A stretch of 46,523 nt of DNA from Chloroflexota bacterium. Lineage in GTDB: Bacteria > Chloroflexota > Anaerolineae > J102. This document shows positions 18,746 to 33,877 of the stretch, in pieces. The stretch is from contig JAADII010000063.1 of NCBI GenBank assembly GCA_013151415.1, forward strand, positions 1-46,523, in the 5' to 3' direction. A program made the translations under genes and the position numbers. Every line of letters starts with the position of its first letter. Within the stretch, counting starts at the first letter, position 1. The notes under the pieces were generated by a model, which had not been told where the DNA came from, searched no databases, and saw only the letters and a list, made by a program, of their open reading frames with translations.

Positions 18746-19978
18746 ATGAAACGAATTCTGATTTTGGGCGCCGGAACGGCCGGCACCATAGTCGCCAATA
18801 AACTTGCGCACGAACTGGACCTCAACGAGTGGAAAATCACCGTTGTCGACCAGTCGGAAATTCACTATTACCAGCCGGGATTCTTGTTCATCCCCTTTGG
18901 CATTTACAGCAAAAACGACGTCATGCGCCCGCGGCGAGACTACCTTCCCCGCCAGGTGGAGGTGATCATCTCGGAAATCGAGCTCATCGAACCGGACAAG
19001 AACCGCGTGCGCATCAAAAAGGACAATCGCACACTGCCCTATGACTTTCTGATCATCACCACCGGCTCGCGCATTGTTCCCGAAGAAACGCCGGGCCTGA
19101 AAGAGCACGAATGGCGCAAGACCATTTATGATTTCTACACGCCAGACGGCGCGACAGCGCTTGCGCGGCAGTTGCGCCGTTGGCAGGGCGGGCGCCTGGT
19201 GTTGAACATCGTGGAAATGCCCATCAAGTGTCCGGTGGCGCCGTTGGAGTTCATGTTCCTGGCCGATTGGTTCTTCCATGAGCAAGGCATCCGCGACCGG
19301 GTGGACCTCACCTTTGTCACGCCTTTGCCAGGCGCGTTCACCAAGCCGCGAGCGTCCGCGCTGTTGGGAGACATCTTGGAAGAAAAGAACATCAACGTGG
19401 AAACCGAATTCAATGTCATGGAGGTGGACCCCGACGCCAAGAAGATCATCTCTTATGACGAGCGCGAGATCGAGTATGACCTGCTGGTCACCATCCCCAC
19501 AAACATGGGGGATCCCGTCATCGAGCGTTCGGGCATGGGGGATGAACTAAACTTCGTGCCCACCGAGAAACGCACGCTAAAGGCCAAGGATTATGACAAT
19601 GTGTTCGTCTTGGGTGACGCCACAAATCTGCCCAGCTCTAAGGCCGGTTCGGTGGCGCATTTCCAAGGGGAAGTGTTCATCGACAACTTCCTGCGCTATA
19701 TCGATGGCCTGCCTTTGCGCGAGACCTTCGACGGCCACGCCAACTGCTATATTGAATCGGGCTTTGGCAAGGGCTTTCTTATCGATTTCAACTACGACGT
19801 GGAGCCGCTTCCGGGCAAATATCCGCTTCCGGGCATTGGTCCTTTCTCGCTCTTGCAGGAATCGCGGCTGAATCACTGGGGCAAGGTGCTTTTCCGCTGG
19901 ATGTACTGGAACATCTTGCTCAAGGGCAAGCCCATGCCCATCACCGCCGAAATGACCATGGCCGGCAAGTGGCTGTAA
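18746..19978 (+). CDS. sqr: Sulfide:quinone oxidoreductase-like flavoprotein
   Basis: This 410-residue protein oxidises sulfide (or a related sulfur species) and passes electrons to the quinone pool. FAD-binding GAGTAG is at 8-13, the second flavin motif NVFVLGDATNLP at 285-296. There are only two cysteines, C162 (PIKCPVAP) and C334 (HANCYIES), at the positions of the two essential redox cysteines of SQR. The third cysteine found in some types is absent. The C-terminal end has amphipathic helices for membrane binding. An AGGAG lies 11 bases before the ATG. It heads a cluster with DUF1641, a DsrC-like and a DsrE2-like protein. Confidence 0.88.
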   Translation: MKRILILGAGTAGTIVANKLAHELDLNEWKITVVDQSEIHYYQPGFLFIPFGIYSKNDVMRPRRDYLPRQVEVIISEIELIEPDKNRVRIKKDNRTLPYDFLIITTGSRIVPEETPGLKEHEWRKTIYDFYTPDGATALARQLRRWQGGRLVLNIVEMPIKCPVAPLEFMFLADWFFHEQGIRDRVDLTFVTPLPGAFTKPRASALLGDILEEKNINVETEFNVMEVDPDAKKIISYDEREIEYDLLVTIPTNMGDPVIERSGMGDELNFVPTEKRTLKAKDYDNVFVLGDATNLPSSKAGSVAHFQGEVFIDNFLRYIDGLPLRETFDGHANCYIESGFGKGFLIDFNYDVEPLPGKYPLPGIGPFSLLQESRLNHWGKVLFRWMYWNILLKGKPMPITAEMTMAGKWL

Positions 19979-19993
19979 GCGAGGATGAGAATC

Positions 19994-20701
19994 ATGGATA
20001 ACACGCAAGCCATCCAAGAGCTAACCCAAAAAGTGGACGCGCTGACCGCGCAAATGCAGGTCTTGACCGAATATGTGGAAGATCAGCGCCGTCGGCAACG
20101 CGAATGGGATGAGCTCAAAGATGATCTCATCCCCATCGCCAACGAAATGTACCTGGCCGCGGTGGAAGAGCTTTCGGAAATCGAGCCTTATGTGCAGTTG
20201 GAAGACATTTGGCATCTGCTCAAACGGTTGGCCCGCAACACCCACAACTTCGAGCGCATGCTCGATCAGCTTGAAAGCCTAAACGACTTGATGCAGGACC
20301 TGGCGCCAATTCTCAACGATGCGTTCTTGGTTGCTATAGAGCAATTGAACGTGATGGACCGCAAAGGTTACTTCGATGCAATGCGCGAAGGCGCGTATGT
20401 CATCGACAACATCGTAGAGGCGTTTGGCCCCGAGGATGTGCGTCAGTTGGGCGATAACATCGTCACCATCCTCACCACGGTGAAAGAGATGACCCAGCCT
20501 GAGATCATGCTCACCATGCAAAATCTCACGCATACCATGCGCGAGGTGGAGATGAAGCCTGAAGAAATCGACACCTCGTTCGTGGGGTTGATCCGCCAAC
20601 TGCGCGACCCGCAAACCCGCCGCGGACTGGCCCTCACTTTACAGATGCTCAAAGCCGTGGGCGAACAACAACCCGGCAACGGTTCAAAGGAGCCATCCTG
20701 A
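19994..20701 (+). CDS. DUF1641 family protein
   Basis: This 235-residue all-helical protein begins with a heptad coiled coil (QELTQKVDALTAQMQVL). It carries the DUF1641 core with repeated LEDIWHLLKRL and NHT-FERML type helices up to IRQLRDPQTRRGLALTLQML. The family often lies next to SQR or formate dehydrogenase genes, and its function is unsettled. A role as a scaffold for the oxidoreductase is inference. The ATG at 19994 has GAGGA eight bases upstream; the ATG at 19985 has no room for one. Confidence 0.85.
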   Translation: MDNTQAIQELTQKVDALTAQMQVLTEYVEDQRRRQREWDELKDDLIPIANEMYLAAVEELSEIEPYVQLEDIWHLLKRLARNTHNFERMLDQLESLNDLMQDLAPILNDAFLVAIEQLNVMDRKGYFDAMREGAYVIDNIVEAFGPEDVRQLGDNIVTILTTVKEMTQPEIMLTMQNLTHTMREVEMKPEEIDTSFVGLIRQLRDPQTRRGLALTLQMLKAVGEQQPGNGSKEPS

Positions 20702-20807
20702 TGGCTCGCCTTCACGCTAATCTCCTTTGATCCATCCTGTTTCACCTCTCCATATATTCTCTCCACACACTCACCTACTTCAAACCATCAAAAAGGAGTA
20801 AACGATC

Positions 20808-21119
20808 ATGGCAACAGCAACGCTTGATCTCCCCGTCGAACTGGACGCTGAAGGATTTCTGGTCAATCCCAACGACTGGACGCCCGAAATCGCCGAAAAA
20901 CTCGCGGCCGACGAAGGCATCGAACTCACCGACCGTCATTGGCAGGTCATCAACTTCGTGCGCGAAGACTTCGCCAAAACCGGCGAACCGCCCACGTTGC
21001 GCCGCATCACCAAGCAATCGGGCGTGAGCACAAAAGAGCTCTACCAGCTTTTCCCCAAAGGCCCGGCCAAGAAAGTCGCCCGCATCGCCGGCCTTGGCAA
21101 GCCCAAAGGCTGCATCTAG
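20808..21119 (+). CDS. DsrC/TusE-family sulfur carrier with a single cysteine
   Basis: This 103-residue protein has the DsrC/TusE fold, with DEEGF-like DAEGFLVNPNDWT and LTDRHWQVINFVREDF. The conserved end GKPKGCI carries the penultimate Cys102 on the mobile arm. The second cysteine of true DsrC, about 10 residues earlier, is absent: the KKVARIAGL stretch has no Cys. It should therefore carry persulfide but cannot form the DsrC trisulfide. It is preceded by AAAAAGGAG. With DsrE2 and SQR it forms a sulfur-relay set. Confidence 0.9.
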   Translation: MATATLDLPVELDAEGFLVNPNDWTPEIAEKLAADEGIELTDRHWQVINFVREDFAKTGEPPTLRRITKQSGVSTKELYQLFPKGPAKKVARIAGLGKPKGCI

Positions 21120-21133
21120 ACCATTGACCATGG

Positions 21134-21149
21134 GACGATAGGACGATGG
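21134..21149. repeat. Octamer array GACGATRR
   Basis: Two full units plus a partial one, between the DsrC-like and DsrE2 genes. It does not disturb the excellent TTAAGGAGG ribosome site at 21250-21258. Confidence 0.8.
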
Positions 21150-21263
21150 ACGGATCTCTCCACAATAAACGTGCGCTTCCGTTCCATCGTCCAACCCCAT
21201 GCCGATGCATGAAGTCGATAGCTTCGATGCATCTCTGACGCAACTCGCTTAAGGAGGCATAAC

Positions 21264-21734
21264 ATGTCTGAGAATGGCGAACGCACTCTGGCGATCATCT
21301 GCTCCAAAGGGACGCTGGATATGGCTTATCCGGGCCTGGTTTTGGCCAATGCAGCCCGCATGATGGGCATGGAGGCCAAGCTTTTCTTCACCTTTTGGGG
21401 CATGGACATCATCAACAAACACAAACAACCCCATCTCAAGTTCACCCCCATCGGCAATCCCAGCACGGGCATGCCCAACTTCGTGGCCGGCTTGCCCGGC
21501 GTGACCGATATGGCCACGAAGATGATGCACAAGCAACTCGAGGAGCTGGACATGCCGCCCGTGGGAGAGTTTTTGGAAATGGTTCACGACGCCGGCGCAG
21601 AGATCTACGCCTGCCGCATGTCGGTGGACATGTTCAAACTCACCGAAGAGGACTTCGTGGACGAAGTGGATGGAATCATTGGCGCCATGGAATTTCTGGA
21701 AATGACCGAAGGCGCCGAAGTGATTTTCATCTGA
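21264..21734 (+). CDS. DsrE2-like sulfurtransferase (DsrE/F/H superfamily)
   Basis: This 156-residue protein has the DsrE2 pattern: LAIICSKGTLDMAYPGLVLA with Cys13, FFTFWGMDII, and IYACRMSVDMF with the conserved Cys near 117. Two hydrophobic stretches suit membrane association. It probably receives sulfane sulfur formed by SQR and hands it to the DsrC-like carrier. A textbook ribosome-binding site precedes it. Confidence 0.9.
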   Translation: MSENGERTLAIICSKGTLDMAYPGLVLANAARMMGMEAKLFFTFWGMDIINKHKQPHLKFTPIGNPSTGMPNFVAGLPGVTDMATKMMHKQLEELDMPPVGEFLEMVHDAGAEIYACRMSVDMFKLTEEDFVDEVDGIIGAMEFLEMTEGAEVIFI

Positions 21735-21819: not shown

Positions 21820-23247
21820 TCATTTCTCTGCCAGCAAGCGTTCAATCGTCTGCTGAAAAACAGAATAGGGCTGCGCGCCGCTGATGAATTCGCCGTTGAT
21901 GAAAAAGGCTGGGGTGCCCTGCACTCCGGCGGCCACGCCCTCGGCCAGATTCTGGTTCACTTGATCGACGATGGCGGGATCGGCAACGCAGGCGTTGAAT
22001 GCGTCCATATCGAGGCCAATGTCTTGGGCAAGTTCGGCGAAGATCTCGTCGGCATTGGGGTTGTTATTCCATCGCGATTGCTCCTCAAAAAGTTTATCGT
22101 GCATTTCCCAGTAGGCGTCTTGCTGACCCGCGCAACGGGCCGCGACCGCCGCGGGGATAGCCTGAGGATGAATCTGGGTGATGGGGAAATCCTTGAATAC
22201 GTAATACACCTTGCCGGTCTCCACATAATCCTTCAGCAATTGCGGCAATGTTTCCTGAAAATAGCGCAGGCAGAAGGGGCACTGATAGTCGGAAAACTCG
22301 ACCATGGTGATGGGCGCGTTTGGGTCGCCACGCGATTGCACTTCCTCCTTTTCGAAGTCGCGATCGGGCGTGGGAGTGGGCGTGGGTAGGATGACGCCTT
22401 CGGGCAATTCGCCACTTTCGGCCTGGGCCAACAAGGCATCGATGATCTGCACGAATTGTTGCGCCGGCAACAAGCCCTGCACCAAACGGCCGTTGATGAC
22501 GAAATTGGGCGTGCCGCGCACGCCGAACTTTTGTCCTTCCTCAAAATCGGCCACAACCGGTTCGATGGAAGCCTGGTCATTCATGCAAGCCTCAAATGCA
22601 TCGACGTCAAGGCCAACCTCCTCGGCGCCCGCCTTCAGGTTTTCCATGAGATCACCCGAGCGCAAAGCGCTTGCATTGGCAAAGATCCAATCGTGCATGG
22701 GCCAAAAGATCGCTTGCTCAGCAGCGCATTGGCTAGCGACGCTGAGCGCAACCGAAAGGTTGCCGCTGACCACCGGATATTCTTTGTAAACAAAGAGCAG
22801 CTTCCCGGTTTGAATGTACGCTTCATCCAGAAGCGGAAGCACTTCCCGCTGGAAGCGCTGACAGTAGGGTCAGGTGTAGTCCGACCACTCATACATAACC
22901 ACAGGGGCATTGGCGTCGCCTTTGGTTTTCACCGGATTGATGACCGCCTCGAAGTCTTTGACTTCGGGCGGCAAGACGATCGAGGCCGCCGAGGGGGGCG
23001 GAGCGGTCGTCGCGGTCGGTCGAACGGTTGGAGCGGTCGGGGTTTGGGAGTCCGCGGTCGGCGAAGGGGCGGCGTCGTTGGGCTGAGCCTGGGCCACGGC
23101 CGTCAGCGTAGCCTGAACCGCTGCATCAATCGCAGCCTGGTCGCGCGGTTCTGTTTCAGGAGGGGCGGCGGCTGGGGCGCATGCAGCCAAGAACATGGTC
23201 GCGGCCACCACCGCAGCCAAGGGAAAGAAAGATCTTATCATGGGCAT
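21820..23247 (-). CDS. Candidate selenoprotein: tandem DsbA-like thioredoxin lipoprotein (UGA-encoded Sec126)
   Basis: Read through one UGA, this is a 475-residue secreted disulfide oxidoreductase with two DsbA/DsbG-like domains. The N-terminus is a lipoprotein signal peptide (lipobox LAAC) followed by a Thr/Pro/Ala linker. Domain 1 reads VVMYEWSDYT-UGA-PYCQRFQ, with UGA (22870-22872) at the first cysteine of CPYC (position 126, partner Cys129). Domain 2 reads EFSDYQCPFCLRYF with Cys323/Cys326. Both domains have the cis-proline motif (RGTPNFVING, QGTPAFFING). The frame is kept on both sides of the UGA, and the downstream half has no good own start or signal peptide. A SECIS-like hairpin follows. 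The alternative is a simple Cys-to-stop mutation (TGC or TGT to TGA). It is probably co-transcribed with the upstream TlpA fusion gene 15 bases away. Confidence 0.75.
22838..22859 (-). promoter_or_regulatory. SECIS-like hairpin after the DsbA UGA
   Basis: In the mRNA, nucleotides 11-32 after the UGA form nine continuous pairs (one G-U) closing a loop AGCG. There is a G in the first two loop positions, and the loop starts 19 nucleotides after the UGA. This fits the published bacterial SECIS rules. The matching place after the Cys codon in domain 2 forms no such hairpin. Confidence 0.65.
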
Positions 23248-31684: not shown

Positions 31685-32104
31685 ATGGTTGAAGATGCGC
31701 CGGCTGCCGGAGGGACTTATGTGTTGTTGTTTTATTTGCCTCGCGCGATGGAGATCGAGGCGGGGCGGCTGGGCCGGGTGACATTGCCCGCGGGCTGGCT
31801 GGCGTATGTGGGATCGGCTCATGGACCGGGCGGATTGCGAGCGCGGCTGGCGCGGCATTTTCGCCGCGAAAAGCGCATTCATTGGCACATCGACGCACTA
31901 ACCACGCGGGTTTCGCCGGTGGCCTGGCATGCGACCACGGGTGATGAACGGCTGGAATGCACCTGGGCTCAGACGTTGGCCGCGCAGCCCGACGCTCGAA
32001 TCCCCGCTCCCGGTTTTGGAAGCAGCGACTGCCGCGCCGGCTGTCCCGCGCATCTCATCGCTTTTCCCAAACGCCCCGATCTGGAACCTATCTACAGAAC
32101 TTAG
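31685..32104 (+). CDS. DUF123 (GIY-YIG-like) nuclease-family protein
   Basis: This 139-residue protein is a DUF123 domain. TYVLLFYLP corresponds to the GIY strand and WLAYVGSAHGPGGLRARLARH to the YIG part. WHIDAL follows, and the end has C-x3-C (SDCRAGCPAHLI). The family is sometimes fused to endonuclease III; the role is unproven. Its end overlaps the convergent zinc-finger gene by four bases. Confidence 0.85.
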   Translation: MVEDAPAAGGTYVLLFYLPRAMEIEAGRLGRVTLPAGWLAYVGSAHGPGGLRARLARHFRREKRIHWHIDALTTRVSPVAWHATTGDERLECTWAQTLAAQPDARIPAPGFGSSDCRAGCPAHLIAFPKRPDLEPIYRT

Positions 32105-32340
32105 GACAAAACCGGATCAGCGTACTCGAACACAGGCACTTTAACAACCTTAGTGGGTTTGAGTCTAGTCTTGGCCAAATGAATCAGGTGTTCGGTCACT
32201 TCTGGCGAGTAGAATTTCTCCCCGCACTGCGTACACACTTGAGCGGGCACGTTCTCAACAAAAAAGAATTCACTCTCATAATCATAGACAAATGTCACCT
32301 GTCGCGACTCAACTTTTCCTCCACAAAAGACGCATTGCAT
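32101..32340 (-). CDS. YgiT-type zinc-finger antitoxin-like protein
   Basis: This 79-residue protein has two CxxC pairs (MQCVFCGG and VCTQCGEKFY) that form the MqsA/YgiT-type zinc finger. A short helical C-terminus (EVTEHLIHLAK) follows. Such proteins accompany DUF4258 partners, and here the partner just upstream is frameshifted. The ATG at 32340 is used, since the zinc finger starts there. Confidence 0.85.
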   Translation of the reverse strand: MQCVFCGGKVESRQVTFVYDYESEFFFVENVPAQVCTQCGEKFYSPEVTEHLIHLAKTRLKPTKVVKVPVFEYADPVLS

Positions 32341-32342
32341 TT

Positions 32343-32636
32343 TTATTGCCTCCTGATCCGACAATCGATCCATTCTTCTGGATCCGGCTCATATACTGTA
32401 ATAATTACAACTCCTGCGGCAAAGAAACTTGAACATGGAGATCTCGACCTAATTTCGTCTTACCATACATGAGACAACTTGGTGAATACTTGTCCTGAGG
32501 ATATTCCTCGATCACTTCGCCATCCCATAACGCCTCGATTCTCGAATGGCTCGATTAAGCGCTGAATCATTCTTTTGATTGCGTGTTCGGAGAATCGAAA
32601 AGCGCCCTTCTGGATTTTGTTTTTGATCTCAGGCAT
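32343..32636 (-). pseudogene. DUF4258 protein broken by two frameshifts
   Basis: Family segments lie in three frames in the right order. They are FRFSEHAIKRMIQR in frame with the ATG at 32636, then ALWDGEVIEEYPQDKYSPS and GRDLHVQVS after a shift near GAGAATC, then VVIITVYEPDPEEW after a second shift near GTTTCTTTG. It ends two bases before the YgiT gene. Either a decayed toxin or sequencing indels could explain this. Confidence 0.75.
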
Positions 32637-32676: not shown

Positions 32677-33159
32677 TCAAACGATTTCCTCGAGCCTCAA
32701 TTCGGTCGTAATGGCCACGCTGCCGCCGATGCTGCGCGCGACGGGACAGAACCGAGCGTGGAAACCGTGCACGCGCTGCGCGGTGGCGCGATGCTCATCG
32801 GCCACGCGCAATGTGTAGGTCACGTGGATGCGCTTGAGAATCATGACATTGTCCTCTTTTTCCACTTCACCCACGGCTTCCGCGGTCAGGCGCCCCTCGC
32901 CGGCCGGAATTTGACGCGCTTCCAGCGCGCCGCCAAAGGTTCCGGTCAGTCAGCCCGCGGTCGCGGCCACCACATAATCGATGGTGGTGGCGTGGGCTTC
33001 GTGGACGCTCATATCCACGCCATAATGCTCGGCGATCTCGGAATGAACGCCAAACCAGATGGGCTGTCCTTCGGCCGGAAGATAAGCCCGGCGCAGAGAC
33101 CCTTTCACGCGCTCGACGCGCACATGGGATTGATAGACGGTAGATTCGCTCTTGGACAC
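32677..33159 (-). CDS. Candidate selenoprotein: OsmC-family peroxiredoxin (UGA-encoded Sec70)
   Basis: Read through one UGA, this is a 160-residue OsmC/Ohr-type thiol peroxidase. The start is GTG at 33159 with GGGAG eight bases upstream. HATTIDYVVAATAG is followed by UGA (32950-32952) and then by LTGTFGGALEARQI. In OsmC proteins a catalytic Cys always sits here. The second, resolving-type Cys138 is present (RFCPVARS). The frame is unbroken over the whole length, and neither half alone would make the fold. A SECIS-like hairpin follows the UGA. It would reduce organic or sulfur-based peroxides. The alternative is a Cys-to-stop mutation, made less likely by the second independent case at 22870. 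Confidence 0.78.
32913..32931 (-). promoter_or_regulatory. SECIS-like hairpin after the OsmC UGA
   Basis: Nucleotides 19-37 after the UGA form seven pairs (one G-U) with loop UGGAA. A G stands in the second loop position and the loop starts 25 nucleotides after the UGA. Size, position and loop match the bacterial SECIS consensus and the hairpin at 22838-22859. Confidence 0.65.
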
Positions 33160-33212
33160 GAAATAGCTCCCAAGGTGATGAGGAAATAGCTTTGCCGATA
33201 ACCTTTTTTTAC

Positions 33213-33635
33213 TTATGGATGAAGGATGAAACCCATTCCAACGTGGGTGAAATGGGCGTCCCCGGTTAATATATCTGAGATGCCGAGCTCTCGCATTACA
33301 ACTATCGTAGTCAAATCGGTAAAAGAAATATCCGGCTTATCCTGATACTTATAGCGCAATTCTCGCGCGGTTTCAAATCGGTCTGGCGTGATCCACACCA
33401 GATCAAGGTAACCGTCATCAATTGCATTCGCTATTATTTTCGTAGCATTGGAAGCCAGATCCGTGGGAAGTCGTTTGAAAAGCAAGGTGTAAACCTCATC
33501 CAGCACATAGTCGCTGGTGACAATTGTAGCTCCGCGATTTCGTAAATCTTGATAATAGCGGCTGACCTCACGATGTTGGCTTTCCCTGCGATTGAAGATA
33601 TTGATCCATCCCCAAGTATCGATGAATAGTATCAT
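33213..33635 (-). CDS. PIN-domain ribonuclease toxin (VapC-like)
   Basis: This 140-residue PIN protein has acidic residues D6 (LFIDTWGWI), E47 (VLDEVYTLL), and the pair in DISFTDLTT and LTGDAHF. It is translated in a four-base overlap with the antitoxin gene upstream. Expected to cut RNA when free. Confidence 0.88.
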   Translation of the reverse strand: MILFIDTWGWINIFNRRESQHREVSRYYQDLRNRGATIVTSDYVLDEVYTLLFKRLPTDLASNATKIIANAIDDGYLDLVWITPDRFETARELRYKYQDKPDISFTDLTTIVVMRELGISDILTGDAHFTHVGMGFILHP

Positions 33636-33877
33636 GTCGCTTCACCGTACAGAATATCGTCAATGACAGGGGAGAACGGCTCGACATCCGCCAGGCCTAT
33701 GGCCTGTAAAATCGGGTCCCGTTCGGGCCTCAATTCTTCTCGATAGCCGCGCGTCGCTTGTTCCTTCTGTTTGAACTTCAAATATCTTATGAAATCATGT
33801 AACTCCACCAAAGATGAAGGCGGAAGCTCCTCGATTTCTCGAAACAAATCCGTTTTTGAGGCTTTAACGATTGCCAT
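33632..33877 (-). CDS. Antitoxin of a VapBC-type pair
   Basis: This 81-residue protein is helical and charged (LFREIEELPPSSLVELHDFI, then RYLKFKQKEQ), with a C-terminal toxin-binding tail ending DDILYGEAT. The class resembles DUF2281-like antitoxins. An AGGAGG precedes the ATG, and a palindromic operator lies just upstream. Confidence 0.75.
   Translation of the reverse strand: MAIVKASKTDLFREIEELPPSSLVELHDFIRYLKFKQKEQATRGYREELRPERDPILQAIGLADVEPFSPVIDDILYGEAT

What the first reader, a model, noticed from the sequence alone, without database searches (positions are those of the whole stretch)
32677..33159. UGA replaces the catalytic cysteine of an OsmC peroxiredoxin: second candidate selenoprotein
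Seen: TIDYVVAATAG, in-frame UGA (32950-32952), LTGTFGGALEARQI; the second Cys is intact in RFCPVARS. A 7-bp hairpin with loop UGGAA starts 19 nt after the UGA (32913-32931). Known: OsmC/Ohr catalysis needs a Cys at this place, and OsmC-like selenoproteins have been reported. Two unrelated redox genes with UGA at precisely the catalytic Cys in one window is hard to explain by chance decay.
Basis: partly seen in the sequence, partly recalled or inferred. Interest (0 to 1): 0.92.

Follow-up and report, generated by a model that had tools for sequence, protein, structure and literature searches.

The report
Selenocysteine-containing OsmC-like redox protein
A small OsmC-type protein in this Chloroflexota-related bacterium carries the rare amino acid selenocysteine, read from a UGA codon, at its catalytic position; the same codon and a frozen RNA hairpin recur in dozens of relatives in three phyla, making it a widespread OsmC selenoprotein subfamily that I did not find in the published lists.

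Summary
The gene (32677-33159, minus strand, GTG start) has one in-frame UGA (32950-32952) exactly where OsmC/Ohr proteins carry their catalytic Cys. The genome holds tRNA-Sec, SelB and SelA. In 87 distinct homologues from Chloroflexota, Actinomycetota and Gemmatimonadota the aligned codon is TGA. In 33 it is Cys (TGC/TGT), and in two degraded or divergent copies it is something else. The hairpin is real and RNA-selected: 69 of 70 close homologues keep the 6-bp stem and all keep a UGG loop, against 2.8 expected from synonymous recoding and 0 of 33 Cys homologues. Four synonymous codons in it are frozen, while the same amino acids vary freely elsewhere in the gene. Fold: OsmC/Ohr. It is not the known OsmC-like selenoprotein: it scores 15 bits against a cut-off of 95 for NF041052, and its motif is ULTG rather than UxxT. 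Best reading: a Sec-first, two-residue (Sec70/Cys138) OsmC-type peroxide or thiol-redox enzyme. The Sec part is about 95% likely; the peroxidase activity is inferred only. OsmC selenoproteins as a kind are known; this subfamily appears unlisted. The window's other candidate (DsbA-like, UGA 22870-22872) also holds up.

The parts
32677..33159 (-). OsmC-like selenoprotein gene, 160 aa (GTG start 33159-33157, ordinary TGA stop 32679-32677)
   Evidence: Translation with TGA=Sec; Pfam OsmC PF02566 44.6 bits, cut-off 27.5; relatives 54-73% identical along the whole length, starting at the same place
32950..32952 (-). UGA codon for selenocysteine 70 (OsmC/Ohr catalytic-Cys position)
   Evidence: Aligned codon in homologues: TGA 87, TGC 31, TGT 2, TGG 1, GAC 1
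32913..32931 (-). SECIS-like hairpin: conserved 6-bp stem 32930-32925/32919-32914, apical loop UGGAA 32924-32920
   Evidence: Inner stem paired in 69/70 close Sec homologues, 0/33 Cys homologues; synonymous-recoding null 2.8 of 70; codons GGC/GCG/CTG/GCG frozen
32746..32748 (-). Codon of Cys138, second (resolving) Cys in the CPVAR motif
   Evidence: Invariant in alignment A1; aligned with the second Cys of T. thermophilus OsmC 1ukk
33167..33171 (-). GGGAG, likely Shine-Dalgarno sequence 7 nt before the GTG
   Evidence: Seen directly in the sequence; inference

Best explanation
The gene encodes an OsmC/Ohr-superfamily protein whose first catalytic residue is selenocysteine (Sec70), inserted at an in-frame UGA. 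Decoding follows the standard bacterial route: SelB with Sec-tRNA-Sec binds the hairpin whose conserved stem begins 22 nt downstream of the first base of the UGA and presents a UGG apical loop; SelA makes Sec-tRNA-Sec. [Sequence, machinery and conservation shown here; actual Sec insertion inferred.] The protein most likely works as a two-residue peroxide reductase: the Sec70 selenolate attacks an (organic) hydroperoxide, the selenenic acid is resolved by Cys138 as a selenenylsulfide, and a dithiol reductant regenerates it. [Fold, the two redox positions and the Sec/Cys swap shown; substrate and reductant inferred from characterised OsmC/Ohr enzymes.] It belongs to a distinct, widespread OsmC subfamily in which Sec is the rule. 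The confidence given is for the Sec-containing OsmC protein; the peroxide-reductase step alone is about 0.6.
For: tRNA-Sec, SelB and SelA are in the same 98%-complete genome. 87 distinct homologues have TGA at the aligned codon and 33 have Cys; nearly all full-length TGA copies have no other stop. Among 34 carrier genomes in a sample of 350 of the phylum, 33 have selA, against 248 of 316 non-carriers (Fisher p 0.006). In Thermoleophilia, 11 of 13 genomes with the Sec form have selA, against 8 of 28 with only the Cys form (p 0.002). The hairpin is conserved at the RNA level: Ala GCG 70/70, Leu CTG 70/70, Ala GCG 68/68, Gly GGC 65/66, whereas the same residues elsewhere use mixed codons; stem 69/70 versus a null of 2.8, and 0/33 in Cys homologues. 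Purifying selection is similar before and after the UGA (pN/pS about 0.22-0.48 upstream and 0.23-0.34 downstream). Predicted structure (pLDDT 83.8) matches OsmC/Ohr: Z 12.0 to 3cje, 10.7 to E. coli OsmC 1nye. The same gene ends with an ordinary TGA stop, so UGA is not globally reassigned.
Against: Three carrier genomes lack a detected selA (G488, G944, G884); they are draft genomes, so gaps may explain it. No Rfam SECIS family matches. The stem is so conserved that classical covariation is scarce (3 one-sided changes to G-U inside the stem), so the RNA argument rests on synonymous freezing. No proteomic, ribosome-profiling or enzymatic data. The neighbourhood gives no functional clue.
Confidence: 0.93

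Rival explanations
1. Decayed gene or sequencing error: the UGA is a nonsense mutation, or an assembly error in a Cys codon.
For: One base separates TGC/TGT from TGA; some relatives really are degraded (L081/L105 TGG and truncated, L090 split by a 2-kb insert, L104 C-terminal remnant, L021 extra TAA).
Against: 87 distinct copies in many genera and three phyla have the UGA at the same codon; purifying selection downstream is like that upstream; the hairpin is selected; the degraded TGG copy shows what decay looks like here: loss of UGA together with the stem (group 'oth').
Confidence: 0.01
2. UGA is read by a standard tRNA (for example Trp, by readthrough or code change), not as Sec.
For: One homologue has TGG at this codon (L081); UGA-C is a leaky context and 69/70 close homologues have UGAC.
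Against: Where UGA is replaced it is by Cys in 33 of 35, and the two others are a degraded and a divergent copy; the TGG copy is truncated and has lost the stem; the gene's own stop is TGA; Sec machinery is present; readthrough does not explain a position-specific hairpin absent from Cys homologues.
Confidence: 0.02
3. A Sec-containing OsmC-fold protein that is not a hydroperoxidase but another selenol/thiol redox enzyme (for example acting on persulfides, a specific metabolite, or protein disulfides).
For: The subfamily is far from characterised OsmC/Ohr: 23 bits against a cut-off of 85.8 for TIGR03562, weak PDB sequence matches, about 10-20% identity in the fold alignments; most structural alignments leave the N-terminal ~45-55 residues out, which hold invariant H39, H45 and Y46; the neighbourhood is uninformative.
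Against: Both redox positions of OsmC (first residue in the long helix, second Cys in CPVAR) are retained.
Confidence: 0.35

Closest known systems
OsmC-like selenoprotein of the Sargasso Sea/GOS surveys (UxxT motif; PMC1088965, PMC2398784, listed in PMC13188914)
   Same: OsmC domain (PF02566); Sec in place of the catalytic Cys; hairpin just after the UGA
   Different: Motif ULTG/UMYG, not UxxT. Those surveys reported 3 and 5 unique sequences; here 87 distinct Sec sequences were found in Chloroflexota, Actinomycetota and Gemmatimonadota
NCBIfam NF041052 OsmC_like_Se, 'OsmC-related (seleno)protein'
   Same: Sec OsmC family, also present in Chloroflexota; some genomes (G467, G436, G509) carry both it and this subfamily
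   Different: This protein scores 15 bits against a cut-off of 95; NF041052 members read AFULLTQL with a second Cys in an ERACHAAQ context, not UxxG...CPVAR
OsmC / Ohr peroxiredoxins (E. coli OsmC 1nye, T. thermophilus OsmC 1ukk, B. subtilis OhrB 2bjo)
   Same: Fold and the two redox positions
   Different: Sec instead of the first Cys; only 9-22% identity in the fold alignments
Cys homologues in Thermoleophilia (motif AGCLIGT...CPNARS)
   Same: Nearest Cys version, whole-length relatives
   Different: Cys codon TGC/TGT and no hairpin (0/33); most of their genomes lack selA (20 of 28)

Membership tests
Bacterial selenoprotein | In-frame UGA conserved in homologues and exchanging with Cys | tested here: met
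   TGA 87, Cys codon 33, other 2 among 122 distinct homologues
Bacterial selenoprotein | SECIS-type hairpin just downstream of the UGA with a small apical loop containing G (PMC1088965) | tested here: met
   6-7 bp stem, loop UGGAA, 22-38 nt after the first U; 69/70 versus null 2.8
Bacterial selenoprotein | tRNA-Sec, SelB and SelA in the same genome | tested here: met
Bacterial selenoprotein | SelD (selenophosphate synthetase) in the same genome | tested here: inconclusive
   Only motif-searched in about 64 kb near selA, selB and tRNA-Sec; not searched genome-wide
Bacterial selenoprotein | Selenium physically incorporated | not testable with these tools
   Needs 75Se labelling or mass spectrometry
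OsmC/Ohr superfamily (PF02566) | Match above the Pfam gathering score and OsmC fold | tested here: met
   44.6 bits against 27.5; fold matches to OsmC/Ohr chains, Z up to 12.0
OsmC/Ohr superfamily (PF02566) | Two redox residues, the first at the long central helix and the second in the C-terminal CP motif | tested here: met
   Sec70 in helix 57-81 and Cys138 between helices 121-137 and 139-144; aligned with the Cys pair of 1ukk
OsmC/Ohr superfamily (PF02566) | Hydroperoxide reductase activity | not testable with these tools
   Needs an enzyme assay
NF041052 OsmC_like_Se | Score above the curated cut-off (95 bits) | tested here: not met
   15 bits
TIGR03562 OsmC subfamily | Score above the curated cut-off (85.8 bits) | tested here: not met
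   23.2 bits
OsmC-like selenoprotein with UxxT motif (PMC1088965, PMC2398784) | UxxT | tested here: not met
   ULTG in the window; ULTG, ULAG or UMxG in the Sec homologues listed

The most novel reading that the evidence does not exclude
A large, unlisted OsmC subfamily for which selenocysteine is the default state: two Sec clades (ULTGT and UMYGT) with no intact Cys reversion found inside them, a separate Cys clade in Thermoleophilia, loss by decay rather than by conversion to Cys, and a SECIS whose primary sequence (GCGCGCUGGANGCGCG) stays nearly fixed across three phyla. This would suggest a Sec-dependent chemistry, or substrate, that Cys cannot easily replace.
Probability: 0.4. Interest if true: 0.62.

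Novelty: new member of a known kind. Interest (0 to 1): 0.5.

Why it matters
Such genes are truncated or missed in automatic annotation because the UGA is called as a stop, so a common redox enzyme of Chloroflexota and Thermoleophilia is hidden. With 87 Sec and 33 Cys sequences the family is a ready-made natural experiment on what selenium adds to an OsmC-type enzyme. Its frozen hairpin is a clean substrate for testing SelB-SECIS recognition outside the classical model organisms.

Tried and rejected
Pseudogene or sequencing error: rejected by conservation and by purifying selection after the UGA. Code reassignment or Trp readthrough: rejected (own TGA stop, Cys exchange, hairpin). Membership in NF041052 or the UxxT family: tested, not met. 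Rfam SECIS models: no hit (only chance matches to unrelated families). Gene neighbourhood as a functional clue: no neighbour conserved across genera emerged (only genus-level synteny, such as a downstream gene that looks like argC in one genus, a name given from its sequence and not tested); in G068 the gene lies 1.7 kb from selA. Plasmid carriage: no plasmid match. A first short DNA alignment (A2) used wrong coordinates for two rows and was not used. A first Fisher test used miscounted Thermoleophilia numbers (10/13) and was redone (11/13).

Full report
Observation. The minus-strand frame 33159-32677 reads through an in-frame UGA at 32950-32952 between ...TTIDYVVAATAG and LTGTFGGALEARQI..., keeps a second Cys in RFCPVARS, and has a 7-bp hairpin with loop UGGAA at 32931-32913. 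With the UGA read as a residue, the 160-aa product matches Pfam OsmC at 44.6 bits (cut-off 27.5). The gene ends with an ordinary TGA stop, so UGA is used both ways within one gene.

Machinery. The window belongs to a 4.5-Mb, 98%-complete genome. It holds one clear tRNA-Sec (77 bits, gathering score 47; ARAGORN: tRNA-SeC, anticodon tca), SelB (over the curated cut-off, 331 bits with its C-terminal part) and SelA (558 bits). SelB and SelC are the accepted signatures of Sec decoding (PMC1273633, abstract seen). SelD was only motif-searched near these genes and not located.

Conservation. A protein search found relatives with a TGA in the same frame in Chloroflexota, Actinomycetota (Solirubrobacterales, Thermoleophilaceae) and one Gemmatimonadetes MAG. 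Profile searches of 396 genomes of the class, 350 of the phylum and 299 of the class of Solirubrobacter pratensis gave, after removing duplicates, 122 distinct homologues with a residue at this column: TGA 87, TGC 31, TGT 2, TGG 1, GAC 1. The TGG copy is truncated and has lost the stem. Other exceptions are a copy split by about 2 kb of foreign sequence (L090), a C-terminal remnant (L104), and two copies with an additional TAA or TAG (L021, L094). A tree built without the Sec column puts Sec and Cys sequences in separate blocks, with a minimum of one Sec/Cys change. There are two Sec clades (U-L-T/A-G-T and U-M-x-G-T) and one Cys clade; the root is not inferred, so direction is not claimed. 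Genomes with the Sec form carry selA more often than genomes without it (33/34 against 248/316 in the phylum sample) or genomes with only the Cys form (11/13 against 8/28 in Thermoleophilia). These tests treat genomes as independent, which they are not, so the p-values (0.006, 0.002) are only indicative.

The hairpin. In 70 distinct homologues of the window's clade, the six inner base pairs are all formed in 69 and the loop begins UGG in all 70. In 33 Cys homologues the stem is formed in none. Recoding the same amino acids at random with the genes' own codon usage gives 2.8 stems per 70 (maximum 9 in 2000 trials). Codon choice shows the same: Gly GGC 65/66, Ala GCG 70/70, Leu CTG 70/70 and Ala GCG 68/68 within the hairpin, against mixed use (entropy about 0.9-2.0 bits) at other conserved Gly, Ala, Leu, Thr and Val positions of the same genes. 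The CTG third base lies in the loop, not the stem, so the loop G is selected independently of pairing. The second Sec clade has a different hairpin sequence at about the same place (sequences). A longer stretch of the window (32952-32904) folds into an extended rod (-21 kcal/mol, z -3.2); whether that extension is conserved was not tested.

The protein. AlphaFold2 on nine aligned homologues gave a confident model (pLDDT 83.8, pTM 0.80). Its best structural matches are OsmC/Ohr proteins (3cje Z 12.0; 2onf 10.9; E. coli OsmC 1nye 10.7; T. thermophilus OsmC 1ukk 10.2). Sec70 lies in the long helix 57-81, and Cys138 lies between helices 121-137 and 139-144. Both align with the Cys pair of 1ukk, and Cys138 is invariant. 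Selection on amino acids is about as strong after the UGA as before it.

Mechanism. Shown: machinery, conserved UGA, Sec/Cys exchange, RNA-selected hairpin, OsmC fold and two redox positions. Inferred: SelB-dependent insertion of Sec, nucleophilic attack of the selenolate on a hydroperoxide, resolution by Cys138, and regeneration by a dithiol, by analogy with characterised OsmC/Ohr enzymes (own knowledge). The substrate is open.

Comparison with the known. OsmC-like selenoproteins were reported from the Sargasso Sea (3 sequences, PMC1088965) and GOS (5 sequences, UxxT, PMC2398784), and remain one entry (UxxT) in the 2026 inventory (PMC13188914). NCBIfam has NF041052 (OsmC-related (seleno)protein). 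The window protein scores 15 bits against its cut-off of 95. NF041052 members from Chloroflexota read ...FULLTQL..., i.e. UxxT, with a different second-Cys context, and can co-occur in one genome with the present subfamily. deep-Sep (PMC12013277) does not mention OsmC. Haft and Tolstoy 2025 is not held. So this is a new member of a known kind: a separate OsmC selenoprotein subfamily not found in the lists I could read.

Caveats. Three carrier genomes lack a detected selA; genomes are mostly drafts; literature coverage is limited to open-licence papers; no wet-lab evidence exists here.

Noticed in passing
window 21820-23247 (-), UGA 22870-22872: Tandem DsbA-like (Thioredoxin_4) lipoprotein-like gene: the first domain reads WSDYT-UGA-PYC and the second has an intact CPFC. 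In same-family genomes ten relatives read YTUPYC and one reads YTCPYC, and a 9-bp hairpin (22859-22838) follows the UGA, so this is a second true selenoprotein.
   Followed up: partly
window 18746-21734 (+): Pyridine nucleotide-disulphide oxidoreductase, DUF1641, DsrC-like and DsrE-like genes in a row: looks like a sulfur-oxidation or sulfur-trafficking cluster.
   Followed up: no
window 33213-33877 (-) and 32101-32373 (-): PIN-domain gene with a small upstream gene (33632-33877), and a weak MqsA-antitoxin-like gene flanking the OsmC gene: probable toxin-antitoxin type neighbours.
   Followed up: no
L090 (G509:C29), L104 (G083), L105 (G669): Degraded copies of the Sec OsmC gene: one split by about 2 kb of foreign sequence just before the UGA, one C-terminal remnant, one truncated with TGG and a broken stem. 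The family seems to be lost by decay, not by conversion to Cys.
   Followed up: partly
L139, L141, L143, L149-L151, L083-L089, L100-L103: Second clade of Sec OsmC proteins (motif GUMxGT) with a different hairpin sequence; L102 seems to show a compensatory C-G to A-U change relative to its neighbours (seen by eye).
   Followed up: partly
G488, G944, G884: Draft genomes that carry the UGA form but show no selA; incomplete assembly or a real loss was not resolved.
   Followed up: no
L021 / G068:C84: The Sec OsmC gene lies 1.7 kb from selA and has an additional in-frame TAA.
   Followed up: no
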